Made by a program: the position numbers and the translations under genes
Shown: positions 9,180-64,000 of the stretch, in pieces
Layout of the letters: every line of letters starts with the position of its first letter
Position numbering within the stretch: the first letter of the stretch is position 1
The notes under the pieces: generated by a model
Told to the model about the DNA's origin: nothing
Database searches by the model: none
Seen by the model: only the letters and a program-made list of their open reading frames with translations
DNA from: Butyrivibrio proteoclasticus B316
GTDB lineage: Bacteria > Bacillota > Clostridia > Lachnospirales > Lachnospiraceae
Length of the DNA: 64,000 nucleotides
Assembly: GCF_000145035.1 (NCBI RefSeq)
Contig: NC_014390.1
Span: 62,001-126,000 of the forward strand
Reading direction: 5' to 3'

Positions 9180-10697
9180 ATGAAGTCAAGAATCCTTATC
9201 CTAATAATAATGGTAGCAGCAGTAGTCATGATCGTTGGCTCAGTATTTGTAAATGCCAATCAGAAAGTATCTGCTCAGACCCTTACACAACAGGAACGTC
9301 CAGGCTTTACAGAGATAACCAGCGTTCCAGGAGTTTCTTTTTACATAAACACACCATTTGTAGAAAAGGCAACAGCCATCACACAGATCTCTGACAATAT
9401 CGGATTTCAGAAGAATCAGTACTATTCATATAAGAACGGAACTGATAAGTATCTTCTTTTCAACATGGAAAAACTCATTGTTGCCGTGCAGAAAGGAACT
9501 GACTTCTGGATCGCAGAATCAAACGATCAGGAGTATTCCCTTTTAAACACAAGCCTTATGAATATATGGTTTACACAGGGAACAAAAAAGTTCTCATGTG
9601 AGACAACTAATGGAATGACCATAACAAAGGCCTGTGCTGGTGTATCTATCAACTCAAACACATATGGCGACTTTGTTGGAGAGCTTGCAAACATCCATAA
9701 GGACGGAGAAGAGTGGTCCATATTTGTAGGTGTTCCCGGAGAAAGATTTGATAAACTTTCTGATGCTTCACAGAAGGGAATTGCTTCCATTGTAAACTCT
9801 TTTGTTTTCTCTAACTCTCAGGGGGATGTTGCAACAGATATCTATGCTGTATCACTTACCGGCGATTCTTCAAAGCAGGCTGTTGATACAACAGAAGAGA
9901 TCTTTGAATATGATGAGAACTCCTTGAATCTTTCCAATCAGAACAGTATCGTTGATAAGGACGAGGAAAAGGCATATACATCTAGTCCTTATAACATGCT
10001 GTTTTTAGGAGATAACGGAATCTTAAGTGCCTTTAATGATTTCACTATTTCCTACGAAGAGCCAATCATCTGTCCAAAGAAAGTGTATAGAGGCGAAGAA
10101 GCAGAAAAACTCATTATGGATTATTGCACAGAGACTGGCGACTATGCTTACTTTAAAGCACCTGATGGCCAGTCATGGGAAGTTGTTGAATATGACCTTA
10201 ACTATAAGAACTGCGAAAATGACGACTACGTTAACATAAAGCTTAAAGGTATGGACGGAGAGCCACTTAGATACCGCGGCATAAAGTATGAAGCAAGGAC
10301 CTATGAGATGGGCCACAAAGCGGTAGAAGATGGTGAATGGATAAGAGGACTCTATGTATATTACCCAGTACCAAATGGCTGCTACGAATACTGTCTTGAA
10401 TGTGGAGAAAGAAAATCTCTTACCGGAGAAGAAGTAAGCGCAGCATATTACCACATCATAAATGAAGAGGAAGTTCACAGTGAACAGGCAGATGAAGCAT
10501 CTGAAGACGCATCTGCAAGCGAAGGCTCATCAACAGAAGAAGCAGCTGCTAGTAGCTCAAGTAGCGAAGATGCTGCAGAAAGCGATGCTTCTACAGATTC
10601 TTCTTCCGAAGATAGTAGCGCCGAGGCATCCAGTGAATCATCAGCCGCTGGATCTTCCAGAGATGAAAGCTCAGCTGAGGGAAGTTCAGCAAAATAA
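9180..10697 (+). CDS. secreted or anchored protein with Ser-rich C-terminus
   Basis: A 505-residue exported protein. Residues 4-25 form a strong hydrophobic signal (ILILIIMVAAVVMIVGSVFV), followed by a possible AQT cleavage region near 32. The folded region has a four-cysteine pattern near its end, including GCYEYCLECGERKS, which may bind metal. The last 80 residues are an extended Ser/Ala/Glu/Asp low-complexity tail (ASEDASASEGSSTEEAA...). No LPXTG sorting signal was seen. The 10724 gene follows after 26 bp and may be co-transcribed. Function unknown. Confidence 0.7.
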   Translation: MKSRILILIIMVAAVVMIVGSVFVNANQKVSAQTLTQQERPGFTEITSVPGVSFYINTPFVEKATAITQISDNIGFQKNQYYSYKNGTDKYLLFNMEKLIVAVQKGTDFWIAESNDQEYSLLNTSLMNIWFTQGTKKFSCETTNGMTITKACAGVSINSNTYGDFVGELANIHKDGEEWSIFVGVPGERFDKLSDASQKGIASIVNSFVFSNSQGDVATDIYAVSLTGDSSKQAVDTTEEIFEYDENSLNLSNQNSIVDKDEEKAYTSSPYNMLFLGDNGILSAFNDFTISYEEPIICPKKVYRGEEAEKLIMDYCTETGDYAYFKAPDGQSWEVVEYDLNYKNCENDDYVNIKLKGMDGEPLRYRGIKYEARTYEMGHKAVEDGEWIRGLYVYYPVPNGCYEYCLECGERKSLTGEEVSAAYYHIINEEEVHSEQADEASEDASASEGSSTEEAAASSSSSEDAAESDASTDSSSEDSSAEASSESSAAGSSRDESSAEGSSAK

Positions 10698-10723
10698 TAA
10701 GTGTTTTTGGGGAAAGATAAACC

Positions 10724-11020
10724 ATGACCATACCTAAAAATAAACAGTATGAGCACAAAACACTTTTCCATTACTATTACAAGGATCTGAATGGTAACTG
10801 GACAAGATGCAGACGGTTTTCGTATAGCGACTGGTACCAAGCTGCCTCATATGGCGATGAATGTTATGACAAGCGAAATACGCCATTTAATCACTATCGC
10901 CGTAATACACAACTCTCAACCAGAGATTTCATCCTAAAACGAGTATTGATCCCGGTATATGTCATGGCTGGGATACTTCTTACAATATTTGTTCTTTTCC
11001 TTTTGTCGATGTTTTTATAA
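10724..11020 (+). CDS. small tail-anchored membrane protein
   Basis: A 98-residue protein with an aromatic, basic N-terminal part (HKTLFHYYYKDLNGNWTRCRRFSYSDW) and a single C-terminal transmembrane helix (ILIPVY-like, residues about 73-97). The N-terminal part should face the cytoplasm. It lies 26 bp after the secreted Ser-rich protein gene and ends just before a GC-rich terminator, so the two genes form one unit. The frame is clear, although the family is unknown. Confidence 0.6.
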   Translation: MTIPKNKQYEHKTLFHYYYKDLNGNWTRCRRFSYSDWYQAASYGDECYDKRNTPFNHYRRNTQLSTRDFILKRVLIPVYVMAGILLTIFVLFLLSMFL

Positions 11021-11031
11021 AGAATTTTCTT

Positions 11032-11053
11032 AAGGGGCGGTCATCCGCCCCTT
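11032..11053 (+). terminator. GC-rich intrinsic terminator
   Basis: AAGGGGCGG / CCGCCCCTT perfect stem, TCAT loop, then TTT. It closes the 9180-11020 unit. Confidence 0.8.
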
Positions 11054-11087
11054 TACATTTCGATATATTAAAGCTATAATATAATTG

Positions 11088-11232
11088 TTTTTGTAGTATA
11101 GTTTTTATTATTGCTTGTAGTAGTCTATGCGTTCAGAGCTTAGGCTTATTTTTATGCCTGTAAAGGCATGAAGCATCTACATGTAATAGTTGTAGAAAAG
11201 AGAGCAGCCTTGTATAAGTCTGTTCTTTTTTT
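11088..11232 (+). ncRNA. structured leader RNA, copy A, ending in an intrinsic terminator
   Basis: Copy of an RNA element shared with 17883-18033. The identical core GGCTTATTTTTATGCC is at 11143-11158. Hairpins: ATGCCT/AGGCAT (11154-11169, GTAA loop), CTACA/TGTAG (11077-type arms at 11177-11195), then AGAGCAG/CTGTTCT (11201-11226) followed by a T run to 11232. An ACGG/CCGT hairpin (11243-11254) lies between terminator and ribosome binding site. The promoter is probably TTTACA at 11052 with TATAAT at 11075. The T run ends 52 bp before the ATG at 11285, so this is either an attenuator/riboswitch-like leader or a separate small RNA. It is not a family I recognise. Confidence 0.7.
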
Positions 11233-42258: not shown

Positions 42259-42331
42259 TGGAGCATACGAGGCTCGAACTCGTGACCTCTTCCATGCCAT
42301 GGAAGCGCGCTCCCAGCTGCGCCAATGCCCC
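42259..42331 (-). tRNA. tRNA-Ala (anticodon GGC)
   Basis: 73 nt from GGGGCAT to discriminator A, no encoded CCA. Acceptor arms GGGGCAT / ATGCTCC pair with the G3:U70 wobble that specifies alanine. D stem GCGC/GCGC, anticodon stem CTTCC/GGAAG with loop ATGGCAT (anticodon GGC), T stem ACGAG/CTCGT with TTCGAGC loop. A full cloverleaf, so probably functional. Unusual on a replicon with no rRNA in sight. Confidence 0.95.
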
Positions 42332-47723: not shown

Positions 47724-50700
47724 CTATCTTAATATCCCTAGCTTTTTCTTACACTGTAGAGTTCTTGGATGGTCATTACCAAAATGACTGGCTGTAAATC
47801 TGTATGCTTCATCGTAAAACTTTTTAGCCGTACTTTTATTTCCTAATTCTGATTCAACATCTCCCTGTAATACTATACAATAAGCCAAGTATTCATCTTT
47901 TAATTTTATTCTATCGTCAGTTTTAGATAGGATTTCTCTTGTTGATACAAGACCTTCTCTTGCCTCAGCCAGATATCCGGATCTGTAATGAAATGTATCC
48001 GTGCACAAAAAAAGAATCGCGTGGAATATACGCACCAAGGTTTCCCACTCAACAGTATCTATAATACCTATATAATCATTTAGGATGTTGGCAAAGTCTT
48101 GCATACGTGATAAGGCTTCACTCTGATCTCCACACCTACACAGTGACAATAAATACTTGGGCTGAGTATAGAAATAATCATCTGGAATCCGATTAAATGC
48201 TTTTATCTCGTCTTGCAATGCTTTATATTCAGACAAGGCATCTTCATATTGTTCTAAAGAAAAGTAACAATAGCCCTTAAGTTTATGAATGTCAGAGTAT
48301 CTTATGTCCGCTTTCGATAACTTACAGCTTTCTATCCAATCATTCATAAACGTAATTGCATCACAAAATTTATTCAGACAGATCATACATATGATTTCGT
48401 CACGAAGAACATAAAACCGATTAACGGTATAGAAGGCAACACTAGCAGCTTCCCCAAGGCTATGGGGGTGCTCCTGGATCATATAGTCTTCTGGATAATA
48501 ACTCTTTCTAAGTTCCATAGCAGCATCTATGCATTCATTATCCCATTCTCCCAGAGTATGGCTAAACGAATATCTTTCTATTATGAATGGTATTGTTTCT
48601 GCCATAATACAAAAAATGAGCTGCTTGTCAGACAAGCTCGATAATGGAATTGCTGAAGGATTCTCTATCGCTTTCTTTTTGTAAAATTCCTGTACTGCCA
48701 CATCGTAAGGACCATGCTTGGTAATAACCTGGGTGTTCAGCCATGCGTAAGCCAACAAGTTCTCGCCATGTTCAGTTGCAAGCTTTTTATGGAACTCAAA
48801 ATCCGAATCATCAAAAGGTAAATATAACGAGTAATTGCAAAATAATAAATATGCAATTTCACGCCAAAGCTCAAATTCTGCTTGATTAATATCCTCACTT
48901 TCAAAAATATTTGAAAGTGCATACTCTAAATAATCCAAATGATCAAGTGGATTACCGTATGTCTTATTGAACCAAAATGATGCAACCAAAAACTCCGCAA
49001 TAGAATTACTCTTCAAGCCATAACTCATACAATGCTTTGCAAAAGATATTCTGATTCTAATTTTTTCTTCCTTCAAAACCTCATCTATAGTTGACTCAGA
49101 GAATAAGAAAACACTCTCTTTTAGTATATCCCCGAGATGCATCATAATATTATCATTGTCTTTTATTTCGGCGATTATTACTTGAGCTGACAAGGAATGG
49201 ATGCGTACATTTAATTCGTTGTCCTCATCTACAAGTCCTAGTTCAATCAAATCATTTAAAACTCTCTTGCTATTCTGTCCAAGAATTTTCAGAATTACAT
49301 GCTTGCTAACTCCTTCTGGTGGCATAAGAGAAAGAATTGCAAGGATTACTTTGCCTTCATATGAAAGCTGTTCAAGTCTAAGCATTTGACCAGTATACTT
49401 AAGAATCGTTTTTTCCTTATCTCCACATACTACCGTTTCATCAAGCTCAAATAGACCGTCTTTTAAGATTCGTTTTAACAGCGCATCTGGACAATAACCA
49501 TTTTGCCTAGCATACTTTGCCAGCAATTTAATAATATAAGTATTTCGTTCTGCTTTGTTTACAATTGTTTCGACTGTTTGATAATCTTTTATATTGTCAT
49601 CAAAGGCTACAAAATCTTTACAAAAGTAGACATAATATAAATTAATAAGATCATTTGTCGTTAACTCATCAATCTTAATTGCGCAAGAACACATATCTTC
49701 TGGTTGAAATCTAGCTGAGACAATGATATTTCCTGATATTTCTTGGAAATGTTCCCATGCCTCAACTTCATCTACGTTAGAATAATCGACTTGGAAATCG
49801 TCCAAAACGAACAAGCAAGTCTCTGTGCATAGTTCCTTTATTCTTTTAATCTTTCTACTGCAGAAAGCTGTTATCTCTTCGTCACCATGACGCGTAAACC
49901 CTTTTATTAAGCTTTCATTATTACTTATAGCCTCGATTATTCCATCAGAGCATGTAAGAAAAAAGACCTTGCTATAGTCGTCGTAGTAATCATAGATGTA
50001 CTTATGAAGCGTTTCACTTTTTCCAATTCCAGCGGAGCCATAAACATACGTAACATGAGACTTCAAAGCTAAAGAACGAAGATTCTGAATCTCCTCAGAT
50101 CTGCCAACTAATCCGTTTCTTTGATGTATTCCACGGCTATCTCCCTGCAATCCATTCCTGTCAGGATTAATCTCTTTAATCAATTCTCCTAAATCTGAAA
50201 TAAAGTCTTCAACAGCGCCATACCTATTTTGGGAAGAAGACCGGATCGTAGAGTGTAATATTTTAGTTATCAAACTCATTGCTGCCTTTGTTAACTGCTC
50301 CCACTGATAAGCTTCTTTAAAGTTATATACAGAGAATGACCTATGTTCTTTATGCGTTGAATTGCGATTAAAAAGTGACCAAAACAAAAGCTCTCCTAAT
50401 AAGTATATATCCGTCTGCTTTGTAATCATATTTGATAATGAACGAAGTTGTTCTGGAGCAGCCCATCTCTCGGAATAGTAAATAATATGCGAAGATTCTA
50501 CATCCTCAATTCTAATCAGACTATCAAAATCAAAGAACATAGCGAACTCTGCTGTATCGGGAATGTGGAAAATATTATCCGGTTTAATATCAAGACATAA
50601 ATATCCTGCAGCGTGGCACTTTTTTACATGCTCAGCAACCGACAGGCAAAATTGCATCCTTTCATATAAGCTCATATTTTCATTATGCAAATAAATATCG

Positions 50701-51062
50701 CCTTCGTATATTGCTACTGCAACGTACTTTGTTCCATTTTGTTCAAAGTCGTCATGAATTACGAATACTTTGTTATCTCTAGTGCGTAATGCTTTTTGAA
50801 TTCTAATTGAGTTATTAAACCTTAAAAGTCCAGCCGCATAGTCTTCCTTGTCGTCTTCTTTACATGATATCCATCCAGTATCAAGATTTCTTGTCAAATT
50901 AAGATAACTAGGATAAAACTCTTTTACAATATATAATGAGTGATCTTTTAAACTCTCACACTTATACACAAGACATGATGAGCCATCTCCTATATGATCA
51001 ACAATCCTATAACTATCCTTATCTCCCCGGAGTAGATAATCCACTGTCAAATATTGCCTCAT
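47724..51062 (-). CDS. Ser/Thr kinase - STAND NTPase - TPR fusion protein
   Basis: A 1112-residue multi-domain protein. Residues about 15-300: eukaryotic-like Ser/Thr kinase with glycine-rich loop IGDGSSCLVYK (24-34), Lys47 in YIVKEF, LDIKPDN (Asp158, Asn163) and FFDFDS (Asp178), and an APEQL segment; catalytic residues are complete. From about 320: GRSEEIQNL followed by STAND/NACHT-type Walker A GSAGIGKSE (about 338-346) and Walker B CLFVLDDFQ; an SARF strand follows. The last 300 residues are TPR-like (SLEQYEDALSEYKALQDE; GYLAEAREGLVS). Such fusions are sensors. ATGA overlap with the 51059 gene. Cytoplasmic. Confidence 0.88.
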   Translation of the reverse strand: MRQYLTVDYLLRGDKDSYRIVDHIGDGSSCLVYKCESLKDHSLYIVKEFYPSYLNLTRNLDTGWISCKEDDKEDYAAGLLRFNNSIRIQKALRTRDNKVFVIHDDFEQNGTKYVAVAIYEGDIYLHNENMSLYERMQFCLSVAEHVKKCHAAGYLCLDIKPDNIFHIPDTAEFAMFFDFDSLIRIEDVESSHIIYYSERWAAPEQLRSLSNMITKQTDIYLLGELLFWSLFNRNSTHKEHRSFSVYNFKEAYQWEQLTKAAMSLITKILHSTIRSSSQNRYGAVEDFISDLGELIKEINPDRNGLQGDSRGIHQRNGLVGRSEEIQNLRSLALKSHVTYVYGSAGIGKSETLHKYIYDYYDDYSKVFFLTCSDGIIEAISNNESLIKGFTRHGDEEITAFCSRKIKRIKELCTETCLFVLDDFQVDYSNVDEVEAWEHFQEISGNIIVSARFQPEDMCSCAIKIDELTTNDLINLYYVYFCKDFVAFDDNIKDYQTVETIVNKAERNTYIIKLLAKYARQNGYCPDALLKRILKDGLFELDETVVCGDKEKTILKYTGQMLRLEQLSYEGKVILAILSLMPPEGVSKHVILKILGQNSKRVLNDLIELGLVDEDNELNVRIHSLSAQVIIAEIKDNDNIMMHLGDILKESVFLFSESTIDEVLKEEKIRIRISFAKHCMSYGLKSNSIAEFLVASFWFNKTYGNPLDHLDYLEYALSNIFESEDINQAEFELWREIAYLLFCNYSLYLPFDDSDFEFHKKLATEHGENLLAYAWLNTQVITKHGPYDVAVQEFYKKKAIENPSAIPLSSLSDKQLIFCIMAETIPFIIERYSFSHTLGEWDNECIDAAMELRKSYYPEDYMIQEHPHSLGEAASVAFYTVNRFYVLRDEIICMICLNKFCDAITFMNDWIESCKLSKADIRYSDIHKLKGYCYFSLEQYEDALSEYKALQDEIKAFNRIPDDYFYTQPKYLLSLCRCGDQSEALSRMQDFANILNDYIGIIDTVEWETLVRIFHAILFLCTDTFHYRSGYLAEAREGLVSTREILSKTDDRIKLKDEYLAYCIVLQGDVESELGNKSTAKKFYDEAYRFTASHFGNDHPRTLQCKKKLGILR

Positions 51063-52608: not shown

Positions 52609-52998
52609 CTATTCAAGCTCTCGTACCATACACAATTTAATCTCAGGTTCCTGACCAACATATCTCCGTAAAGATTCCTCTATCTTTGACCAATATTTAG
52701 AATGGATTACATGCACACAAAAAATATCAGAACACTTTATCCCGACAACAATGTCTTTTTTTGTATGCAAATATAACTCTAAAGGTTCAATCCATGTATA
52801 GTAAGAAATATCAGTTAAATTCAATTCTTTTTTTATTTGCTTTTTTATGACTTTCCAATCATCATTTGTCAAAAACCAGCCATTACTCTTACTATTATTT
52901 TTCAAATAATCTATGCAGCTTTGAGTTTTTTTCGCGCCTTGAGTTCTTCCTTGATTATTGCCACGAGTCATATATCTTCGTTTATTTTTACAAGCCAT
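52609..52998 (-). CDS. stand-alone DnaA domain I-like protein
   Basis: A 129-residue protein with a basic N-terminal tail (MACKNKRRYMTRGNNQG). From about 45 it has the fold of the DnaA N-terminal domain: DWKVIKKQIKKELNLTDISYYTWIEPLELYLHT...VIHSKYWSKIEESLRRYVG. The YTWIEPLEL signature matches domain I, which binds DnaB and loading factors. Domains II-IV are absent. Located downstream of the Rep gene, past a terminator. Might recruit the plasmid DnaB. The gap at 52355-52608 holds nothing else I can support. Confidence 0.75.
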   Translation of the reverse strand: MACKNKRRYMTRGNNQGRTQGAKKTQSCIDYLKNNSKSNGWFLTNDDWKVIKKQIKKELNLTDISYYTWIEPLELYLHTKKDIVVGIKCSDIFCVHVIHSKYWSKIEESLRRYVGQEPEIKLCMVRELE

Positions 52999-53145: not shown

Positions 53146-54324
53146 TCAATTATCCAAAAGTTTTTCTTCTAATTCACTAAAGTCTTGTTCTCGCTGCATG
53201 AAGTTTTGCAGCAATGTACCATTCTTGCGTTCAAAAGATTTCTGGGGATGCAAATAATACTCTTTTTTGATACACTCCTTCATAAAGGCCATGGAATTTT
53301 CAATTTCTATATTATAGTTCCGCATGTACTCATATGATTTCTTTACTTTATCAGAGTTATAATCAGCTGTCCTAAGGATTTCCTTAAGCTCACTAAGCTT
53401 AAAGTTTTCATGCATTATTTCATACAAATCGTCCAAAATATCATCTTCATTGAATTCTTCAGCAGTTACAGTTTCATCAGATAAGTCCCGCCTGTTGATA
53501 AAAAATCTGACTCCAACAACCCTTTTTCCGCTCTTTATTGATTCATAATCCATTTCTATGCAGGTTTTTCCATTAAGTTCTTCCTTGACTTTACTTAGGA
53601 CACATCTATTAAACACCTTGTATTCCTTATATCGGTTGTCCACCTTTTTCCCCATTGCATCAACCAACGTACCTATCCTTTCATAATCAGGATATTCTTT
53701 CTCAAGCTCGGCCTTTATTTCCTTATTACCACCAGTTGTAATGATTCCTAATTCAAGCTTCAGTTCAACAAGAGAGTATTCTATTACGCAACAAACAATA
53801 GTCTTTTTTATGGCCTTCTGATAATCATACGCAGATTTAAAAATCTCATACATTCTAAGCGAATAAATGCTCTTAAGGCTAAGTGTTTCAGAAAGACTTA
53901 GTGTAGTATAGCCCTTTTTCAGATTTGTAATCTTATCTGTAAGGAAGTTGTTATATCTCAGCGTAAGTGTTCCATCCTTGAAATAAGCATCTGTTACCAC
54001 TTGATGTGCTTCAATCTTCCCTTTCTCTTTATCTTTGAAAAGAAGCTGCCATTGAAAGATGGTTGAGCCTTTCATCTGCTGGTCGCATAGTTCTTCTATA
54101 TGTTGGTACAAAGATCCCGAAGTGGAATTAAATAGCTTTCTGAGTTGAGACCCTCGTATTGTTGCCACAACATTGTTGGTCTCATCTATATGCATGTTGA
54201 GCATTCCTACTGCAAAAAGTTTTTGACTAAGGGCAGTGCCTATTCCCATTGCATTAATAAGTTCATTTGACTTCTTATAGTCCTTGCTCCTAACTATAAG
54301 TTCGTTACGGTCTTCTGCTTTCAT
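53146..54324 (-). CDS. Rep_3-family plasmid replication initiator
   Basis: About 392 residues. Contains the two winged-helix halves of initiator Rep proteins: RNELIVRSKDYKKSNELINAMG ... LFNSTSGSLYQHIEELCDQ, then GYTTLSLSETLSLKSIYSLRMYEIFKSAYDY (the hallmark L.S.YSLR.YE segment). Rep_3 proteins bind iterons and load helicase. I start at the ATG at 54324 (GGAGG upstream), but GTG at 54363 or the frame to 54384 overlapping dnaC is possible. Last gene of the replication transcript. It identifies the DNA as a plasmid or chromid. Confidence 0.9.
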   Translation of the reverse strand: MKAEDRNELIVRSKDYKKSNELINAMGIGTALSQKLFAVGMLNMHIDETNNVVATIRGSQLRKLFNSTSGSLYQHIEELCDQQMKGSTIFQWQLLFKDKEKGKIEAHQVVTDAYFKDGTLTLRYNNFLTDKITNLKKGYTTLSLSETLSLKSIYSLRMYEIFKSAYDYQKAIKKTIVCCVIEYSLVELKLELGIITTGGNKEIKAELEKEYPDYERIGTLVDAMGKKVDNRYKEYKVFNRCVLSKVKEELNGKTCIEMDYESIKSGKRVVGVRFFINRRDLSDETVTAEEFNEDDILDDLYEIMHENFKLSELKEILRTADYNSDKVKKSYEYMRNYNIEIENSMAFMKECIKKEYYLHPQKSFERKNGTLLQNFMQREQDFSELEEKLLDN

Positions 54325-54355
54325 TGCAGCATTTCCTCCAACAACATTTTTGGTT

Positions 54356-55336
54356 TCACTCACTTTTTTTACCCTTTTTAGCAAGTTTTTTTTCTTTACG
54401 AATATCCGGTCCAGTCAGCCTTAGTAACTTATAATTTCCAGTAATTCTTGAAAAAATCCTGTCAGAATAAATACTCTGCAGTCCTTCAAGCGAATAATTC
54501 GTGGTTATGATTGTCGACTTTTTCCGATTACCTCGCTCTTCAAGTAGAGAAAAAAGTTCTTTTGCTACGAAGCTTCCCATAATCTCAGTTCCAAGATCAT
54601 CAACTACAAGAAGATCGCATTCGTACAAGTCATCGTATACTGTCCTTAACCATGCTTTATTTTTAAAGTCAAATGCGTACTCTGATATCAGCTCAAAAAG
54701 GCCAATTGAACTGAAATAAATAACTGAATTACCTTTCTTTAAAAGCTCATCTGCAATACAAATAGACATAAAGCTTTTACCCGTGCCAACTGTGCCAAAA
54801 AAGAAAAGGTTCTGATAATCAATGTTAAATGAAGCTATAAACTCTTCCGCAGCCTTCTTTGCGCCTTTAAATCTAGTAAGATCTTCGCCCTTATAATATG
54901 AATCAGTCATGTTTTCAAAATTACATTCTTTAGTCATGGCCCGGAGATTGGATTTATCATATAGAGTCTCTATAATTTTCTGCTTAAAACAATGGCATTT
55001 TTCATTTCCTATATAACCTGTGTCCTTGCAGTCTTTGCACACATATCCAATTTCCAAAAAGTCGGATGCATAACCTGCATCCTTTAAAAGCTTCTCTTTT
55101 TGAGCTGCTAAATCATTTAACTTCGACGCTAAAAGACCTTTATCCAGGCTCTCTCCAGATATGATACGTTTTCCAAACTCCACACTTGCAGAAGCAGTTT
55201 GTTCTTCAAGTTTCTTATACTCAGGGATGGTATCGTATATTCTTTGCAATCTATTTTCTCGTTCCCGCCTATGGCGAATATGCAAAGCTTCATACTGTTG
55301 CATAATGCTATTGTATTGGTTATTTGTAAGAGGCAT
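54356..55336 (-). CDS. dnaC: DnaC/DnaI-like helicase loader ATPase
   Basis: A 326-residue AAA+ ATPase. The N-terminal 130 residues carry a zinc-binding motif (CKDCKDTGYIGNEKCHCFKQK). Walker A is GTVGTGKSF, Walker B LLVVDDLGTE, and the rest follows the DnaC/IstB fold with IITTNYSLEGL. It loads DnaB on single-stranded origin DNA. Located 43 bp downstream of dnaB and just before rep, so helicase, loader and initiator are made together. AAGGAG before ATG. Confidence 0.93.
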   Translation of the reverse strand: MPLTNNQYNSIMQQYEALHIRHRRERENRLQRIYDTIPEYKKLEEQTASASVEFGKRIISGESLDKGLLASKLNDLAAQKEKLLKDAGYASDFLEIGYVCKDCKDTGYIGNEKCHCFKQKIIETLYDKSNLRAMTKECNFENMTDSYYKGEDLTRFKGAKKAAEEFIASFNIDYQNLFFFGTVGTGKSFMSICIADELLKKGNSVIYFSSIGLFELISEYAFDFKNKAWLRTVYDDLYECDLLVVDDLGTEIMGSFVAKELFSLLEERGNRKKSTIITTNYSLEGLQSIYSDRIFSRITGNYKLLRLTGPDIRKEKKLAKKGKKSE

Positions 55337-55379
55337 TTTTACTCCTTCGAAAATAGTTTTTTGCCATTATTCTTATTAA

Positions 55380-56729
55380 CTATTTCCTGTCCGTTGCAAG
55401 ATTAGCAAATTTGGTATACTCCGGTAACCATGCCAGTTCCACAGTCCCTATAGGACCGTTTCGCTGTTTAGCGATGATAATCTGGGCAACACCTTTTTTC
55501 TCAGTATCTTTGTTATAAAAATCTTCTCTGTGGATGAACATTACCATGTCCGCATCCTGCTCAATTGATCCAGATTCACGAAGATCTGACAGGATAGGTA
55601 AATGATCTGCTCTTTTTTCAGCTTCTCTGTTTAGCTGTGAAAGCGCAATTATCGGTATTTCTAACTCTCTGGCAAGAGATTTTAACGCCTTAGATATTTC
55701 AGCTACAATTTCCTGTCTTGATGCAGACGAGTTCTTACCTTGTTTACTTCCAACAAGCTGAAGGTAATCTATAAATACGATATCAAGGCCTGCTTCACTC
55801 TTAAATTTCCTGCACTTAGCCTGAATATCCTGAATTGTGATGCCTGATGAATCGTCTATGATAAATTTGGACTTCGCAATAATCCCTGCGCTATCTATGA
55901 CACTATTCCAATCACTGTCAGTTAGATCTCCACTTTTTATTCTCGTAGAATCAACACGCGAGTCCATGGCGATAAGACGGTTTACAAGCTGCTCTTTTGG
56001 CATTTCCAAAGAAAAAATAGCTACACATTTGTTATCATGTAGAGCCATATACTCTGCGATATTTAATGCAAACGCTGTCTTTCCCATTGATGGACGTGCT
56101 GCAATAAGGACTAGATCTGCTGAATGGAAGCCAGATGTGCTATAGTCAAGATCTGTAAAGCCTGTAGCAATGCCTGTGATATGCCCTTTCATCTTACTTG
56201 CTTGTTCCATGATATTCAGTGAATTCATGACAATCTGGTCAATGGGAGTTATTATTCCAGCACTCCTTTTCTGTGTTACAGCCAGCACGTTTTTTTCAGC
56301 ATCACTCAATACACCCTCTACATCATCAGCTTCCGTATAGCATGCGTTTTCAGCATCATTACACGCTTTGATAAGTTTTCTCAGCGTAGATTTGTTTTTT
56401 ACGATATTGGCATAATATTTTACATTCGCAGAAGTGGGAACTCTCTCTACCAGTCTTACTATAAACTCATCACTACAAACCTCAAGCGAAACATTCTTTT
56501 CTCTTAAGCGATTCTGTAAGGTAACAGGATCTACAGCATTTTCCTCTTTTTCTAGTTCCACGATTGTTGAAAACATAATTCCCAGTTGTCTGTAATAAAA
56601 ATCGTCTTCTATTAGTATTTCAGCCGCCGTTTTAATCGCAGCTCTGTCCATTATCATTGCACCGATTACCGACTGCTCAGCATCCTGATTATTCGGCGGA
56701 ATTCGCCGCAATATATTTTCGTCATTCAT
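55380..56729 (-). CDS. dnaB: replicative DNA helicase DnaB
   Basis: A 449-residue DnaB, normal length. N-terminal collar domain (NNQDAEQSVIGAMIMDRAAI), linker, then RecA-type helicase with Walker A ARPSMGKTAFALN, Walker B IVFIDYLQL and the EIVAEISKALKSLARELEIP...SQLNREAEKR segment. GGAGGT site. A plasmid-encoded DnaB hexamer would allow the replicon to set up its own forks. Co-oriented with dnaC and polC. Confidence 0.96.
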   Translation of the reverse strand: MNDENILRRIPPNNQDAEQSVIGAMIMDRAAIKTAAEILIEDDFYYRQLGIMFSTIVELEKEENAVDPVTLQNRLREKNVSLEVCSDEFIVRLVERVPTSANVKYYANIVKNKSTLRKLIKACNDAENACYTEADDVEGVLSDAEKNVLAVTQKRSAGIITPIDQIVMNSLNIMEQASKMKGHITGIATGFTDLDYSTSGFHSADLVLIAARPSMGKTAFALNIAEYMALHDNKCVAIFSLEMPKEQLVNRLIAMDSRVDSTRIKSGDLTDSDWNSVIDSAGIIAKSKFIIDDSSGITIQDIQAKCRKFKSEAGLDIVFIDYLQLVGSKQGKNSSASRQEIVAEISKALKSLARELEIPIIALSQLNREAEKRADHLPILSDLRESGSIEQDADMVMFIHREDFYNKDTEKKGVAQIIIAKQRNGPIGTVELAWLPEYTKFANLATDRK

Positions 56730-56767
56730 TGTCTACCTCCCGTTTTTCTGCTTATTTGGCCAAAAAA

Positions 56768-57065
56768 CTATATTTCTTCTCCATCAAATGAAAATTCCAC
56801 AGACAATTGCGATTTGTCCAACTCTGTTGTATCTGCTATGGTCTCAACCAAAAAGCTACAGAACTTATGCTTAACATAGTCCAAAGCCATGTCATTTTTA
56901 TGTGGAAACAGTATATAAATCACTCCCTCTAAATACCAGAAACTCCAATGGCTCTATCCATGTAAGATATGAAATATAGGTAAGACGACATTCTTGTCTC
57001 ACCATCTGTTTAATATCATCCCATTTTTCCTTTATTCTATTTGTTATTGAAACATCATCAGTCAT
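56768..57065 (-). pseudogene. frameshifted DnaA domain I-like gene
   Basis: ATG at 57065 with GGAGAAGG upstream; frame 1 reads MTDDVSITNRIKEKWDDIKQ..., then RLTYISYLTWIEPLEF, and stops. A neighbouring frame continues GVIYILFPHKNDMALDYVKH and ends QLSVEFSFDGEEI at 56768. Joined, they give a second DnaA domain I-like protein similar to 52609-52998. The single slip near 56945-56955 is a mutation, a programmed frameshift or a sequence error. Lies 17 bp after polC. Confidence 0.65.
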
Positions 57066-57082
57066 AACCTTCTCCTAACTTC

Positions 57083-60000
57083 CTATTTCCCCATCAGATC
57101 AAAGATGCTTAGCTGGCTCGACTCAGGAAGATTGCCAAGAAGGCCAAGCCTTGTCATATTGTCCACAACAACCTGCGGACACTTGGTTCTTGATTTAAAA
57201 TCATCCCTTGAAGTAAATGGTCCTTCCTTCGCAGCCTCAACTATCTGATCCGCAGCCTTCTCTCCTAATCTTTCCAAACTTACGAGACTAGGCATAATCT
57301 TATCGCCAACAACTTTGAAGGTTCTGGATTCCGCTTTGTAAATGTCTATAGGCTCAACTTCTATACCTCTTTCGTACATTTCTTCAGCCAGCCTCATCGC
57401 CATTAGCTCATCTTCTTCTACAGCTGTAAGAGCATCACCTTTTTTCCTATATTCTTCCATGTACCTTTTCAAAGTGGCTTTACCCTGGAACATCCTTTCA
57501 TAGTTGAGAGCTTTAGCCCTGATAGAAAACCACGCAGCATAAAAAGCTTGTGGAATATAAATCTTGAAATAAGCGATTCTCCAAGCCATCATTACGTAAG
57601 CTGCAGCATGAGCTTTGGGAAACATGTACTCAATCTTTTTGCATGAGCCCATGTACCACTCAGGGACGCCTTTATCCATCATGTCTTGTTCCCAGTTGGG
57701 CCAGTTATTTTCTTTTCCTTTTGCTACCTTTCCTTTACGCACTGCCTCCATGATTTTAAAAGACTCTGACGGATCAAGGCCTTTATGGATAAGATAAACC
57801 ATAATGTCATCACGACAGCAAATGCACGAACTTAGAGTGGCAGCTCCTGAATCTATAAGATCTTTAGCATTTCCAAGCCATACGCCAGTGCCATGTGAAA
57901 GACCAGATATTCTTATGAGATCAGAGAAAGACTGTGGTTTGGCATCGATTACCATGTTCATGGCAAAATCTGTACCAAATTCTGGCAATCCCAAGCATCC
58001 TAGCTTCGTACCGCTTATCTGTTCCGGTGTAATGCCAAGAGCCGTAGTATTCATGAATAAAGTCATTACTAACCTGTCATCAAGTGGTACATCTTTAGGA
58101 TCAAGCCCAGTGCAATCGTTCAAAAATCTGATCATTGTAGGGTCATCATGCCCTAGAATGTCGAGTTTAAGCAGGTTATGATCTATTTTATGGTAATCAA
58201 AATGTGTCGTTATGATGGGAGTGTCCATATCATTAGCTGGATGTTGTATTGGAGTAAAACTGTAAATGTTTTCTCCGACAGGAAGAACAACGATTCCGCC
58301 CGGATGCTGTCCAGTTCCACGTCGCACACCTTTGCAGCCCTCTGCTAGCCTCTCAATTTCAGCACTTCTCTTAGTCTTTTCTGCTTGCTCAAAATACTTT
58401 TTCACATAACCATAGGCAGTCTTATCTGCCACAGATTGGATTGTTCCAGCTCTGAATGTCTGACCATCTCCGAAGATAACTTCCGTATATTTATGAGCTT
58501 TCGACTGGTATTCTCCGGAAAAGTTAAGGTCAATATCTGGTTCCTTGTCTCCCTTGAATCCTAGAAATGTTTCGAAAGGGATATCAAAACCATCTTTCTT
58601 CATCAGCGCACCGCAGCGCGGACATCTTTTGTCAGGCATATCACATCCGGAATTTCCTGCATATTTTTTTACATCTTCACTGTCAAATTCACTGTATTGG
58701 CACTCAGGACACAGATAATGCGGAGCCAGGGAGTTGACTTCTGTTATGCCAGCTGCATACGCCACAAACGATGAACCTACAGATCCCCTTGATCCTACAA
58801 GATATCCATCCTCCAAGGACTTCCACACTAGTTTCTGTGCAATGATATAAAGAACTGCGTAACCATTCCCTATGATTGACTTGAGCTCTTTTTCCAAACG
58901 CTCTTCTACTATCGGAGGAAGTGGATCTCCATACATCTCATGCATCTTGTCGTAGCAAATCTTTCTAAGTAGTTCATCGCTATTCTCTATTACCGGTGGG
59001 CATTTATCTGGTCTTACAGGCGATATCTTTTCACACCAATCAAATATCTTATTTGAATTCTCAATAACCACCTCTCTCGCTTTCTCTTCACCAAGATATT
59101 CAAACTCCTGAAGCATTTCCTCTGTAGTTCTGAGATACAAAGGTGCTGGATCTTCTTTGTCCATCTTCTTCATGGAAAGAATAATTGTCCTATAAATCTC
59201 GTCTTCAGGGTTTAAGAAGTGCACGTCACATGTGGCGACTACGGGTTTGTTATAATGCTCTCCTAATTTAACTATCTTTCGGTTGATATCCCTTAAGTCT
59301 TCTTCGGAATTGATTTTTTCCATTTTTTCATTGGCTATCATGAATTTATTATTTGCTATTGGTTGAATCTCCAAATAGTCATAGAAGTCTACTATCTTTG
59401 CTATCTCTTCATCCGACCGGCCTTCTCTAACAGCTTCATAAAGCTCTCCTAAACAGCATGCTGATCCAACAATCAATCCCTCCCTATACTTGATCAATTC
59501 ACTCTTTGGGATAATTGGCTTCCTATAATAGTAATCAATATGAGACTTGCTGATTAATGTATAGAGATTAGTTCTTCCACAAGTATCTTTTGCTATCAGA
59601 ATTACATGATTACTGTGAAGTCTCTTGACAGCTTCTATATCCAGTTCTTCGATAGCCTTAATAGCATCAAGATCATAAATACCTTTTTCGTACAATTTCT
59701 CCTGGAAGATTTTAAAAATCTCTGCAGTACATTCCGCGTCAGAAATCGCCCTATGATGTTGCTCATTAACAACCTTTAAGGTTTTACACACTGCTTCAAG
59801 ACTATGCTTTGCCTGTTGTGGGTAAAAAGCTCTTGATAATCCCATTGTATCTATGCAGGTGAATTCCTTTTTTATGCCCAGTCGCCTACAATTCTCTATA
59901 ATGAAGCTGATATCAAAACCAACATTATGTCCTACAAGAACACAATCTCCGCAAAACTCTACAAACTTTGGGACAACAGCATCAATCAAAGGTGCACCTA

Positions 60001-61555
60001 TAACCATGTCATCTGTAATGGTCGTCAGTTTAGTGGTAGCTGGAGATATCGGAATCTTTGGATCTACAAACTCAGAGAATTTGTCCACTACTACACCATC
60101 CAACATTTTTACTGCACCAATCTCTATTATCTTGTCCTCTGTAGGTGAAAGACCTGTTGTCTCAATATCAAAAACTACAGCTGGAACTCCTTTTAACTCC
60201 TGACCCTTGTTATTAGTAACAATCTTTACAAAGTCATCAACCAAATAGCCTTCAACACCTAGCAAAAGCTTAAACTTATCAATATCACAGTCTTTATGCT
60301 TTCCTTTGTATTCTTTTATAAAGTGATCCCCTTCTGTCAGTCCTTGAACAACTGCGTGATCGGTGATCGCTATACCAGGCATTCCCCACTTGTATGCCTG
60401 CAAAATGATATCTTCGGCACTAGAAACCGCATCCATATCACTCATTTTTGTATGACAATGTAGCTCTACTCTTTTTCTTGGGGCATTATCGACTCTCTTC
60501 GTCGTAAAATCAGGAATTTCTTTGATTCCCACAACGCTCTGGATGGAAACTTCATGGTCAAAATTATCAAGTGCAGCTATTCCTTTTAACTTTATGAAAG
60601 CACCCACATGGATTTTTTCCTCAAGTTTTGCTACTTGCTCCTGTTTGGCAAATATCTTAACTTTGATGCTGTCCGTAAAGTCAGTAATGGCAAACATCAG
60701 AATAGCTTTTTCATTTTTTATGTCTTTACGTTCATACTTAATAATCTGTCCACGAACAACAATTTCACCTATAGCCCCCTCGATATCGATAATCTGCGTA
60801 ATTTCTTCATCAAAGTTTCTGCCATAGATTATTGATGGATCATCTGGTATTTTTGAAAACTTTCCTTTAGCAAAAGTCGCACCTTTCTTGATATCCTGCT
60901 TTGACTTTTCATTGCTCCAATTACTATCCTGCTTTTTTTCTACCTTTTCAGATCTGGATTCAACAACCTTGATAGCATCAACCTCTACAATCTCAGGTCC
61001 TTTTTCTATATGGACTGCATCGTATGTATATTGAGGCTTAGTTCTTTCTACCGCCTCCCTGTATGTAATATTAAAATTGACATTCAATCCGCAACGCTCA
61101 TTAAAAATCTTTTCAAATACGCGCTTTATATCCTGAGCCTTTTTCCTAGTAATCACGTTTTCTTCAAGACATATGTTCACATTAGAATCATCTGGATACT
61201 CAAAAGTAGCCCTTTTTATGATGGTATGCTCAATTGGATCATAATTCTTGAATTCCAGAAAGATACTCTCCGAATAAAAATCCATGAGATATTTAGGCGT
61301 ATATTGTGAAGACAGTGTAAATTTTTCATATACTTTCACCGTAACGTTAACCCCAGAAAAAAGCTGGTCTTGAATAGACTTTTCAATCTTATAAATTGTA
61401 CTTTTTTCGATTAATATGCTGCTTTTGATGTAAATACGTATAAAATCATGCTTCTTAGTTGATGAAATCTTCTCAATCTCAACACTTTTCATATCATTGA
61501 AAATATCATCATCGACCTTAAGCATGGGAAATGCTTCAAAAAACATTCTGTTCAT
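57083..61555 (-). CDS. polC: DNA polymerase III PolC-type alpha subunit
   Basis: 1490 residues; Bacillus PolC is 1437, so it is full length. N-terminal domain, OB fold ([16 protein letters not shown]), PHP domain [13 protein letters not shown] (about 362), DEDDh exonuclease with FDIETTG (about 460), HNVGFDISF and [10 protein letters not shown]; zinc motif CPECQ...CPRCG; polymerase motif [12 protein letters not shown] (about 1003). All catalytic motifs are present. It synthesises DNA at the fork with 3'-5' proofreading. Overlaps the 61552 gene by four bases. Very unusual on a plasmid. Confidence 0.96.
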   Translation of the reverse strand: [1490 protein letters not shown]

Positions 61556-61836
61556 AATTCGTTTGCTCCATTTATTCCTTGGGGTTCATCCCCCTGTTCT
61601 GTTTTGGAACAGGCAATCACCAAATCATCAAAGATGATATATTCACCCGGCTTGATCTGACTGATATACTTGGCAACTTTATCCAGGTCTAAGTCTTTAA
61701 GCGCGCACATCCTGACCATATCATCGACATCTGCGAATTCCCCTGGCCGGAGATTATGCATATATTCTGATAGCCTCTCAAGATCAAACTCTATTTCATC
61801 TTCCGGCTCATTATGTTTTTTTCTTTTTGAGGCCAT
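61552..61836 (-). CDS. small two-repeat acidic protein coupled to polC
   Basis: A 94-residue protein with two repeat units: LSEYMHNLRPGEFADVDDMVRMC and VAKYISQIKPGEYIIFDDLVIAC (shared Y...(I/L)(R/K)PGE(F/Y)..(F/V)DD(L/M)V..C). Its stop overlaps the polC start (ATGA), so the two are translationally coupled. AGGAGGG upstream. It may be a polymerase partner or accessory; no homologue known to me. Confidence 0.65.
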   Translation of the reverse strand: MASKRKKHNEPEDEIEFDLERLSEYMHNLRPGEFADVDDMVRMCALKDLDLDKVAKYISQIKPGEYIIFDDLVIACSKTEQGDEPQGINGANEL

Positions 61837-61961
61837 AAAAAATTCCCTCCTGATGTATAAAAAGGTTATATAAGTATAAAAAACAAAGTGGACACATTAT
61901 GACCACGTCGAATTATTGCTTAATTAAGGTTATGTTTTCTCCAGATTTACATAATAAAAAA

Positions 61962-61989
61962 AGCGATGTACATTTTTTAGTACATCGCT
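61962..61989 (-). terminator. intrinsic terminator after the 62033 gene
   Basis: AGCGATGTAC / GTACATCGCT perfect stem, T run on the minus strand. The following operon (61836 leftward) therefore needs its own promoter in 61837-61960; I see no clear one. Confidence 0.8.
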
Positions 61990-62032
61990 CTCTTGCGAGC
62001 ATAATAGTATTTTGGGCTATATGAACCATAAA

Positions 62033-62665
62033 TTAAATTGCCTGAATAACCTTATATATTTCGTCTGCAAGTATCTTGTGCCCCTCAGGAGTCAAATGCA
62101 ATGAATCTGTCTCTGATGGATATATATACTGAGCTGCATTAAAGAAAATACATCCTTTACTGTCAGCAATTTTCTCGTAATATTCATGGAACTTTTTAGA
62201 CTCATCAATAGCATTTTCAGTGAATGCCCCATAAAACGGAGAGTACTTTATGCCAGCACCTATCTCTGGAGGAGAAACCAGAATAATCTCTGGAACAAAG
62301 TCCTGTTTTTCTGCAGTAAATTCTTTTATTACATCAATGAGAATGCCTGCATTTTCAGCTATCTGCTCAGCTGTAAGATGGAATGTCTGCTTGAGATCAT
62401 TGCTCCCAAGCATCAGAATCAATATATCTATTGGCTTGTGTGAATTGAGACATGGTCTCAAATAATCAAGACCGTTCTTCCATCCATCAATTGGATCATC
62501 GTGAATAGTCGTTCTTCCATTACAGCCTTCCTCGATAACTGCATAGTCACTCCCAAGAAGCATCTGTAGTCTTCCAGGATACCTAATATCCTTTGGATAC
62601 CTCATTCCTGTCTCTGGAATATAGCCATATGTATTTGAATCGCCATAACAAAGGATTGTTTTCAT
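62033..62665 (-). CDS. SGNH/GDSL-family hydrolase, second copy
   Basis: A 210-residue hydrolase closely similar to the protein at 1692-2333: TILCYGDSNTYGYIPETGMRYPKDIRYPGRL, MLGSNDLKQTFHLTAEQIAENAG, DSLHLTPEGH. All catalytic blocks are kept. AAGAGGT precedes the ATG. Lies between the DnaA AAA+ gene and polC but with its own terminator. Two copies on one replicon suggest duplication and divergence or independent gain. Confidence 0.85.
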   Translation of the reverse strand: MKTILCYGDSNTYGYIPETGMRYPKDIRYPGRLQMLLGSDYAVIEEGCNGRTTIHDDPIDGWKNGLDYLRPCLNSHKPIDILILMLGSNDLKQTFHLTAEQIAENAGILIDVIKEFTAEKQDFVPEIILVSPPEIGAGIKYSPFYGAFTENAIDESKKFHEYYEKIADSKGCIFFNAAQYIYPSETDSLHLTPEGHKILADEIYKVIQAI

Positions 62666-62787
62666 CGCCTATGTACCTCTTGAAATTAGTCATACTTATA
62701 ATAAAACATTCTTAAGCACGTTTAAATCACATCAAATATATTAGTTCCACTACATATGTTATTACCTAACAATTCATAAACATATAA

Positions 62788-63633
62788 TCAAAACTCTATC
62801 CTAGCTAAAAGCCCTTTCTCTATACGTGATATAAGAGCTTCTTCAATCCCTAATTTACGTGGCTCTTTTTGCGAAGAAAATACTAATTGTTTCTCATCAT
62901 TAAGCATGACATCAATTATATTAACCAATTCGCTTGATGCTTCACTTTTGCCCACAAAACAATCTATGTCATCTATAAGAAGAACGTCCAGGGACCTATA
63001 AAAATCGACAAATTTGTTTGAATTCCCATTTGTTTTCATATCCATGACATCGTTTATAAACTTTTCCGCTAAAATATAAAATGCACGCTTGTCGTCACTT
63101 TCATGATTAATATAATCCTCTATTGTTTTCAAAAGGTGTGTCTTTCCTGAACCGTGATCTCCATAGATATATAGCGGATTATATGATTCTTTACGCGGAT
63201 CTATGATTAACTGTGCTGCTTGAAATGCAAAGTAATTCCCTGAAGAAACACGAAAGTTCAAGAAACTATACTTATCCATAATCTGCCATTCCTGTTTCTC
63301 AAGATAGCTCATATAATGGCTACTTCCGTCATAATGCACTTGGGGAAGTTCTGTTAATCCAAAACATTCCATTATCTTCGGAATATATTCCTCACCAATA
63401 TTACAGTTCATATATAGAATCGGCTTTCCTTTTGAATTAAACTCCACTCTACCTCGCGGGTAATAGTAAAATGGCTTATTACTACACTCCTTAGGTTTTA
63501 CAAAGTCCCACAGAAGCTTATGATTGTAGTTTTTTCCCGACTTAGCAACTCCAACAGTTGCATCCGCTTCAAAAGGGAAAGCTAGTATTGAATTGTCTAC
63601 AAGCCAAAACACGCCTCTTTTTGGTTCACCCAT
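62788..63633 (-). CDS. DnaA-like AAA+ ATPase lacking the DNA-binding domain
   Basis: A 281-residue protein. Residues 1-100 are an unrelated domain (GVFWLVDNSILAFPFEADATVGV...YYYPRGRVEFNSKGKPILYMNC) that I cannot name. From 120 it is DnaA domain III: FLNFRVSSGNYFAFQAAQ, YNPLYIYGDHGSGKTHLL (Walker A), DVLLIDDIDCF (Walker B), LVFSSQKEPRKL, ISRIEKGLLARIE. It ends there: no lid remainder, no domain IV helix-turn-helix that reads DnaA boxes. It could regulate DnaA or load helicase. AAGGAG before ATG. Confidence 0.85.
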   Translation of the reverse strand: MGEPKRGVFWLVDNSILAFPFEADATVGVAKSGKNYNHKLLWDFVKPKECSNKPFYYYPRGRVEFNSKGKPILYMNCNIGEEYIPKIMECFGLTELPQVHYDGSSHYMSYLEKQEWQIMDKYSFLNFRVSSGNYFAFQAAQLIIDPRKESYNPLYIYGDHGSGKTHLLKTIEDYINHESDDKRAFYILAEKFINDVMDMKTNGNSNKFVDFYRSLDVLLIDDIDCFVGKSEASSELVNIIDVMLNDEKQLVFSSQKEPRKLGIEEALISRIEKGLLARIEF

Positions 63634-63771: not shown

Positions 63772-64000
63772 TCAGTTAATAGTTATCCTATCTTTGCTAT
63801 TTTCAGCCACTAAGCCACCATAATGCTGTATTTCCATCATACTATGTGCTCTTGGGAACACATGACTGATCTTTTCGCATGATTTTAAATACCACTCTGG
63901 GATTCCTGCATTATAAAGAAGCGCTATAGTCTCAGCATCCCATCCATTTCTTTTAATCCTTCCCCAACGAACATCTTCAGAAATCCGATAAGCTTTTTCT
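63772..64000 (-). pseudogene. decayed PolC-related fragment, runs off the window
   Basis: Minus-strand frame open to the right edge reads AYRISEDVRWGRIKRNGW..., IPEWYLKSCEKISHVFPRAH, then SMMEIQHYGGLVAENSKDRITIN and a stop. PolC at 57083 has [20 protein letters not shown] at the matching place, followed by 200 more residues, so this copy is cut and diverged. Upstream extent is unknown. The 63634-63771 gap holds only promoter-like A/T sequence. Confidence 0.65.

What the first reader, a model, noticed from the sequence alone, without database searches (positions are those of the whole stretch)
53146..63633. Plasmid-type replicon carrying its own PolC, DnaB, DnaC and DnaA-like parts
A Rep_3 initiator, DnaC, DnaB and full-length PolC are in one minus-strand block with DnaA-like genes on both sides. 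PolC is normally a chromosomal essential gene; all its motifs are intact here. The replicon may run replication with its own fork machinery, or the genes may supplement or replace host copies. No ParA/ParB gene is in the window.
Basis: partly seen in the sequence, partly recalled or inferred. Interest (0 to 1): 0.85.

Follow-up and report, generated by a model that had tools for sequence, protein, structure and literature searches.

The report
Second replication-fork gene set on megaplasmid

Summary
The window lies in pCY186 (186,325 bp) of Butyrivibrio proteoclasticus B316. A minus-strand block encodes Rep_3, DnaC, DnaB and an intact 1,490-aa PolC. The chromosome has its own polC at the usual locus, plus dnaB, dnaC and dnaA, so both stated refuters fail. 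But the block is not the plasmid's basic replicon. That lies about 60 kb away: ParA, ParB, an iteron array and another Rep_3, at the GC-skew minimum. The flanking "DnaA" genes are single domains, and the dnaA that relatives carry between dnaB and polC is a broken remnant here. The block recurs in 3 others of 79 Butyrivibrio species genomes, one with a cut rep; a fifth keeps dnaA-dnaB but has lost the polC core. The four plasmid PolCs form one clade (100%) with a long stem; recent copying from the host is rejected (AU p=1.5e-6). Between two relatives dN/dS of PolC is about 0.02. A plasmid DnaX and inactive-looking polymerase relatives lie nearby; the only clamp gene is chromosomal. Best reading: an auxiliary replisome island acting in trans with the host clamp. 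A second PolC on a chromid is in print for Clostridium butyricum, so this is a new variant.

The parts
52609..52998 (-). 129-aa protein with DnaA domain I only
   Evidence: PF11638 E 5e-5, TIGR00362 positions 1-73; 32% over 65 aa to domain I of the NC2007 DnaA
53146..54324 (-). Rep_3 initiator, 392 aa from the likely ATG; one of three Rep_3 genes on pCY186
   Evidence: PF01051, PF21205; 76% to VCB2006/NC2007, 61% to the chromid BPc2 Rep, 50% to pCY360 Rep
54356..55336 (-). DnaC/DnaI-type helicase loader, 326 aa
   Evidence: NF005304 312 bits; chromosomal paralogue C1:383065-384021
55380..56729 (-). full-length DnaB replicative helicase, 449 aa
   Evidence: TIGR00665 514 bits; 80-81% to 3 plasmid relatives, 64% to own chromosomal DnaB
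56771..57065 (-). broken dnaA remnant (residues 1-43 and 45-101 of the relatives' DnaA, in two different frames; AAA+ and domain IV absent)
   Evidence: tblastn E 1e-32; intact 462-aa DnaA with all three domains at this place in NC2007
57083..61555 (-). PolC, 1490 aa, intact
   Evidence: TIGR01405 1536 bits; motifs; trees
61552..61836 (-). 94-aa protein of unknown family overlapping the polC start by 4 nt; conserved upstream of polC in three relatives (45-60%)
   Evidence: no Pfam or NCBIfam match
62033..62665 (-). GDSL-type hydrolase; not found in the relatives' contigs
   Evidence: PF13472; no match
62788..63633 (-). 281-aa protein: N-terminal part of about 113 aa shared by the islands, plus a DnaA AAA+ domain, no domain IV
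   Evidence: PF00308 141 bits; N-terminal part alone found in VCB2006, NC2007, UBA3740 and G018
63772..64000 (-). in-window part of a 332-aa PolC-palm fragment (runs to C4:126770) whose PDIDLNF motif reads LSIEINV
   Evidence: PF07733 47 bits; alignment

Best explanation
A plasmid-borne auxiliary replisome island. SHOWN: DnaC, DnaB and PolC (with an intact DnaA in relatives) and a nearby DnaX are diverged relatives of chromosomal-type replication genes, next to a plasmid/chromid-type Rep_3. They are open and under purifying selection, on plasmids with different basic replicons; they lie away from the skew-inferred origin, on the leading strand. The host keeps its own polC, dnaB, dnaC and dnaA, and the only clamp gene in the genome is chromosomal. 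INFERRED: the proteins act in trans. DnaC loads the plasmid DnaB at the plasmid's iteron origin, or at a site opened by the island's Rep/DnaA proteins, and PolC, held on the host beta clamp through its C-terminal clamp motif, elongates with host primase and SSB (SSB genes were not searched). The plasmid thus supplies its own loader-helicase-polymerase module rather than competing for the host's.
For: Plasmid identity. Intact motifs. Pairwise NG86 dN/dS VCB2006/NC2007: PolC 0.0017/0.076, DnaB 0.0046/0.122, DnaC 0.034/0.32, Rep 0.0058/0.40. Plasmid-type PolC and DnaB occur in the same 4 of 79 genomes; order up94-polC-dnaA-dnaAs-dnaB-dnaC-rep shared by 3 relatives. Plasmid PolCs one clade (100), stem 0.52-0.55, inside Butyrivibrio; plasmid DnaBs one clade (100), stem 0.62, among same-genus rows. 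DnaX nearby. A single dnaN, chromosomal. Origin elsewhere, with iterons. The VCB2006 contig has a different Rep and ParA at its own skew minimum.
Against: No gene-level expression, interaction or replication data were seen. In pCY186 the island's dnaA is broken. In UBA3740 the Rep matches only 120 of 392 residues and polC is interrupted by a run of N. In G018 PolC residues 134-1406 are gone while dnaA and dnaB stay open, so PolC is dispensable there. No origin or iteron array was found beside the island's Rep. The island is rare: 4 of 79 genomes, 5 with G018. For pCY186 itself most synonymous distances are saturated.
Confidence: 0.5

Rival explanations
1. Second replicon: pCY186 is a cointegrate and the block is the replication module of another plasmid, with Rep_3 #2 firing its own origin.
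For: Three Rep_3 genes on pCY186. The block's Rep is 61% identical to the chromid's Rep, which sits at the chromid's iterons and skew minimum. The island is shared by plasmids with different Rep/ParA.
Against: Skew minimum and iterons lie at rep1 in pCY186; the block is near the skew maximum. In VCB2006 the skew minimum is also at a different Rep/ParA. No iteron array by the block.
Confidence: 0.17
2. Helper for the host: the plasmid copies reinforce or back up chromosome and chromid replication (gene dosage, stress, or escape from agents that block host PolC/DnaB).
For: The proteins are close enough to host ones (64-65%) with a conserved clamp motif that they could join host forks.
Against: Long diverged stems argue against simple dosage; rare in the genus.
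Confidence: 0.2
3. Passenger genes moved from a chromosome, without a replication role and slowly decaying.
For: Broken dnaA in pCY186, cut rep in UBA3740, deleted polC core in G018, inactive-looking polymerase relatives beside the block. A 2011 title (Yeoman et al., seen only in reference lists) claims gene shuttling from the chromosome.
Against: dN/dS 0.015-0.10 for PolC, DnaB, DnaC and Rep between VCB2006 and NC2007; the four genes are open in pCY186, VCB2006 and NC2007; one old clade rather than repeated copying, and grouping with the host's own PolC rejected (p=1.5e-6).
Confidence: 0.1

Closest known systems
Clostridium butyricum 0.8-Mb chromid with a second polC (PMC12342839; section 13 and passages read)
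   Same: A Clostridia secondary replicon with plasmid-type replication carries a second PolC while the chromosome keeps one
   Different: Among minimal-genome-set genes its Table 2 lists PolC as the only replication gene; no dnaB/dnaC/dnaA/rep set is named; not compared by sequence here
Lactococcus cremoris plasmid pUC073A (CP155774, 211 kb)
   Same: Annotated PolC, DnaB-like helicase, another DNA polymerase and a replication initiation protein within about 46 kb
   Different: PolC only 35% identical, genes not in one block; no evidence of common descent as a set
Butyrivibrio chromids and megaplasmids BPc2, pCY360, pNP243
   Same: Rep_3 plus ParA/ParB at the origin end of the record, and in BPc2 and pCY360 AAAAGGGAA iterons; related Rep proteins
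   Different: No PolC-DnaB-DnaC block in BPc2 or pCY360; 31 of 34 Rep loci from genome contigs lack these genes within the sequence held, several with short flanks
Phage replication modules with own initiator, loader and helicase
   Same: A mobile element brings its own helicase loading (family knowledge, not tested)
   Different: Three phage/viral contigs with PolC were opened: L121 (H62) and L211 carry chromosomal polC neighbours, L212 is unresolved; none has the block's other genes. The remaining phage hits, including the closest one, H61 (58%), were not opened. Rep had no match in 50,697 phage records

Membership tests
PolC-type DNA polymerase III | full TIGR01405 match with PHP, DEDDh exonuclease and palm motifs | tested here: met
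PolC-type DNA polymerase III | polymerase activity as the replicative enzyme | not testable with these tools
   needs a bench assay
Rep_3 iteron plasmid basic replicon (for the block) | Rep_3 WH1 and WH2 domains | tested here: met
Rep_3 iteron plasmid basic replicon (for the block) | iteron array near rep | tested here: not met
   present at rep1 of pCY186 instead
Rep_3 iteron plasmid basic replicon (for the block) | location at the GC-skew minimum | tested here: not met
Chromid (pCY186) | carries a core gene that is absent from the chromosome | tested here: inconclusive
   only six genes tested (polC, dnaB, dnaC, dnaA, dnaG, dnaN): all have a chromosomal copy
Chromid (pCY186) | G+C close to the chromosome (usually within 1%) | tested here: not met
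   38.10% against 40.21% in Table 1 of PMC2914790
Complete self-sufficient replisome | own sliding clamp | tested here: not met
   the only dnaN match in the genome is chromosomal
Complete self-sufficient replisome | own SSB and delta/delta-prime clamp-loader subunits | not tested
   no search made for these on pCY186

The most novel reading that the evidence does not exclude
pCY186-type megaplasmids are copied by an orthogonal fork: a dedicated plasmid helicase, loader and PolC, with its own DnaX, that works on plasmid DNA and borrows the clamp (and probably primase and SSB) from the host, so that two lineages of replicative machinery run side by side in one cell.
Probability: 0.25. Interest if true: 0.85.

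Novelty: new variant of a known kind. Interest (0 to 1): 0.6.

Why it matters
Plasmids of this kind are usually taken to bring an initiator and to rely on host fork proteins (general knowledge). A conserved plasmid set spanning initiator, loader, helicase, polymerase and clamp-loader ATPase would let one ask whether a plasmid fork is built from its own parts, and how two diverged PolCs and DnaBs are kept apart in one cell. The neighbouring single-domain DnaA genes and inactive-looking polymerases suggest that replication genes are being taken apart and reused on these plasmids.

Tried and rejected
Chromosomal contig or only polC: rejected. Phage origin: three phage/viral contigs were opened. 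L121 has frr-uppS-cdsA-dxr-rseP-ispG and L211 has ispG beside polC, so both are chromosomal loci; L212 showed only polC and stays unresolved; none has the block's dnaB, dnaC, dnaA or rep. The other phage hits were not opened. 'Plasmid' hits H2 (Monoglobus, ispG-polC-tex) and H8 (Subdoligranulum, frr to ispG beside polC) are chromosomal context; of the 12 plasmid records with at least 80% cover I opened only H2, H8 and H10 (Pontibacillus; no replication genes annotated within 8 kb). A decayed chromosomal polC in G021 proved to be a contig-end overlap, 99% identical to the end of another contig over 7 kb. DnaA-box clusters: 224 sites with up to 1 mismatch in 186 kb give 8 triplets within 200 bp, about what chance gives by a rough reckoning of mine. 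Copying from its own host's polC: rejected, p=1.5e-6; origin outside the genus only weakly rejected, p=0.022. Long branches limit exact placement; DnaB and PolC point to different subclades; the DnaB tree held same-genus rows only and its chosen outgroup was not one side of a branch. Literature: searches found no description of the block, but Yeoman et al. 2011 (Plasmid 66:67) is not held, so I do not claim that it is unpublished.
Full report
Identity. The window is C4:62001-126000 of a 4,404,886-bp, four-contig genome. The contig lengths 3,554,804, 302,358, 361,399 and 186,325 equal Table 1 of PMC2914790 (passages read) for Butyrivibrio proteoclasticus B316: chromosome, chromid BPc2, pCY360 and pCY186. 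The window is therefore megaplasmid pCY186. The words 'polymerase' and 'replication' do not occur in that paper's main text. In passages of PMC6344614, PMC5716241, PMC6249431 and PMC12456017 'polymerase' has no occurrence, and in PMC6912079 one, in a reference.

Anatomy. Read along the minus strand: a 94-aa gene (61836-61552), polC (61555-57083), a 353-bp gap, dnaB, dnaC, rep, then a 129-aa DnaA-domain-I gene. PolC, DnaB, DnaC and Rep_3 exceed curated cut-offs. PolC keeps every catalytic stretch examined and 503 of 533 columns invariant in the 44 non-plasmid PolC rows; its best sequence matches among solved structures are PolCs 9qpc and 3f2b. The gap contains residues 1-43 and 45-101 of a DnaA in two frames. 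Beyond the window end, in the same direction, lie a 332-aa PolC palm piece whose PDIDLNF reads LSIEINV, an FtsH-like AAA+/M41 protein, a 480-aa DnaE-like palm-finger protein without the catalytic aspartates at the expected place, a 405-aa DnaX (ATPase, lid and domain III), a domain-IV-only DnaA and a third, 263-aa Rep_3.

Host copies. polC C1:1178121-1182701 (65% identical) has frr-uppS-cdsA-dxr-rseP-ispG before it and rimP-nusA after it (gene names read by me from the translations). The same neighbours lie by polC in G021. dnaB, dnaC and dnaA are also chromosomal. dnaN exists once, on the chromosome. dnaG over cut-off exists once, on the chromosome; pCY186 has a 393-aa protein with a weak DnaG zinc-finger match. 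SSB and the other clamp-loader subunits were not searched.

Not the basic replicon. The cumulative GC skew of pCY186 has its minimum at 0 and maximum near 106 kb. At 0 lie ParA (183122), ParB (184388), nine exact AAAAGGGAA cores within longer iterons, and rep1 (29-1309). BPc2 and pCY360 have nine and seven same-strand copies of that core before their reps. My 10-mer scan found arrays in pCY186 only at 181.6-183.7 kb and at the origin, none near the block, and the repeat finder/TRF found none there. The block lies on the leading strand by the skew. In VCB2006 the skew minimum (68 kb, 2-kb steps) is next to a different ParA (70669) and Rep_3 (73081-74418), while the block is at 110-121 kb. Only 29 of 209 pCY186 ORFs have a blastp match (E<=1e-8) on the VCB2006 contig, 24 on the NC2007 contig, most of them in the island. 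The NC2007 contig has its skew minimum at its edge, so its origin is not seen. VCB2006 and NC2007 are draft contigs; that they are plasmids is inferred from ParA/Rep and skew. A 2019 study holds VCB2006 and XBB1001 to be B. proteoclasticus strains (passage of PMC6912079), so these relatives are close; their islands still differ from pCY186's by a quarter of PolC residues.

Distribution. Plasmid-type PolC (75-80%; in UBA3740 80% over residues 368-1490 and 56% over 1-375) and DnaB (80-81%) occur in the same 4 of 79 Butyrivibrio species genomes, the window's own included: G000, G011, G012, G026. G011, G012 and G026 are VCB2006, NC2007 and UBA3740. In UBA3740, a metagenome assembly, polC is interrupted by a run of N and Rep matches over only 120 of 392 residues. 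A fifth genome, G018, has up94, dnaA (66%), dnaAs and dnaB (55%) in the same order with PolC residues 134-1406 missing and no dnaC or rep match on its 10.9-kb contig. Of 34 Rep loci in genome contigs, 3 have the block; 31 do not, several with short flanks. The 172-aa truncated DnaA of the block gave 6 hits at E<=1e-10 among 5.8 billion proteins (78 candidates scored; only lengths 0.55-1.75 times the query are seen), one from Butyrivibrio sp. XBB1001 on a 154,598-bp contig. Of 396 genomes of the family, at most two candidates per genome were scored and the listing was cut, so second copies outside the genus could be missed.

Selection and descent. Pairwise NG86 dN/dS, VCB2006 versus NC2007: PolC 0.0017/0.076, DnaB 0.0046/0.122, DnaC 0.034/0.32, Rep 0.0058/0.40, DnaA 0/0.024; the DnaE-like protein, pCY186 versus VCB2006, 0.135/0.87. 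In pairs with pCY186, PolC, DnaB and Rep are saturated at synonymous sites, with dN 0.12-0.18. The four plasmid PolCs form one clade (100), stem 0.55, inside Butyrivibrio (48 rows, 12 from outside the genus, LG+G4) and again in 22 rows with a mixture model. AU tests reject grouping with the host's own PolC (p=1.5e-6) and with its subclade (p=1.2e-9), and weakly a place outside the genus (p=0.022). DnaB gives one clade (100), stem 0.62, nested among same-genus rows near another subclade; no outside rows were included. So the set is old, on a long stem, and probably genus-derived.

Mechanism. The simplest reading is trans action: DnaC loads plasmid DnaB and PolC elongates on the host clamp. Own-fork, host-helper and second-origin readings differ in where the proteins work, which sequence cannot tell. 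The broken dnaA in pCY186, the cut rep in UBA3740 and the lost polC core in G018 show that parts are dispensable in some hosts.

Relation to the known. A second PolC on a chromid is in print for Clostridium butyricum, and a Lactococcus plasmid has PolC with a DnaB-like helicase. What I did not find described (searches listed under Tried and rejected) is a compact block under selection that joins Rep_3, DnaC, DnaB, DnaA and PolC on plasmids, away from the origin.

Noticed in passing
L245:9036-10271 (+), G025:C5: A 411-aa protein fuses a DnaB C-terminal helicase domain (52-305) to DnaA domain IV (319-386); the next gene (10450-11181) carries DnaA domain I. This looks like a helicase that could target DnaA boxes by itself.
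   Followed up: partly
C4:128180-129622 (beyond window end) and VCB2006 477-aa homologue: A DnaE-like palm-finger protein lacking the catalytic aspartate motif in both plasmids, 76% identical, dN/dS 0.135/0.87: a conserved, inactive-looking polymerase.
   Followed up: partly
pCY360, C3:187213-199762 (L074:7213-19762): Separate genes for a PHP domain (510 aa), a polymerase (982 aa, PDFDSD intact), a DnaQ-like exonuclease and an SSB-like protein: apparently a split DnaE-type polymerase set on the other megaplasmid (named from sequence and weak TIGR01405 matches; no Pfam run).
   Followed up: partly
window 52609-52998, 62788-63633 and C4:135731-136105: DnaA domains I, III and IV occur as three separate genes around the block.
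   Followed up: partly
L085:9071-10300 (NC2007), also VCB2006 and UBA3740: A full FtsZ paralogue (GTPase and C-terminal domains) lies in the relatives' islands; no match to it was seen among the pCY186 ORFs compared with the NC2007 and VCB2006 contigs.
   Followed up: no
BPc2 C2:116527-141262: The chromid carries related island genes: WYL (78%), FtsH-like (60%), MBL-fold (40%), a DnaB C-domain-only protein (294 aa) and a DnaC/DnaA-type AAA protein.
   Followed up: no
window 47724-51062: 1112-aa protein with a kinase domain and an NTPase-like region, downstream of the block with a 440-aa partner of no Pfam family.
   Followed up: no
window 42259-42331: Single tRNA-Ala (GGC anticodon) in the window, in line with the one tRNA on pCY186 in the published table.
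   Followed up: no
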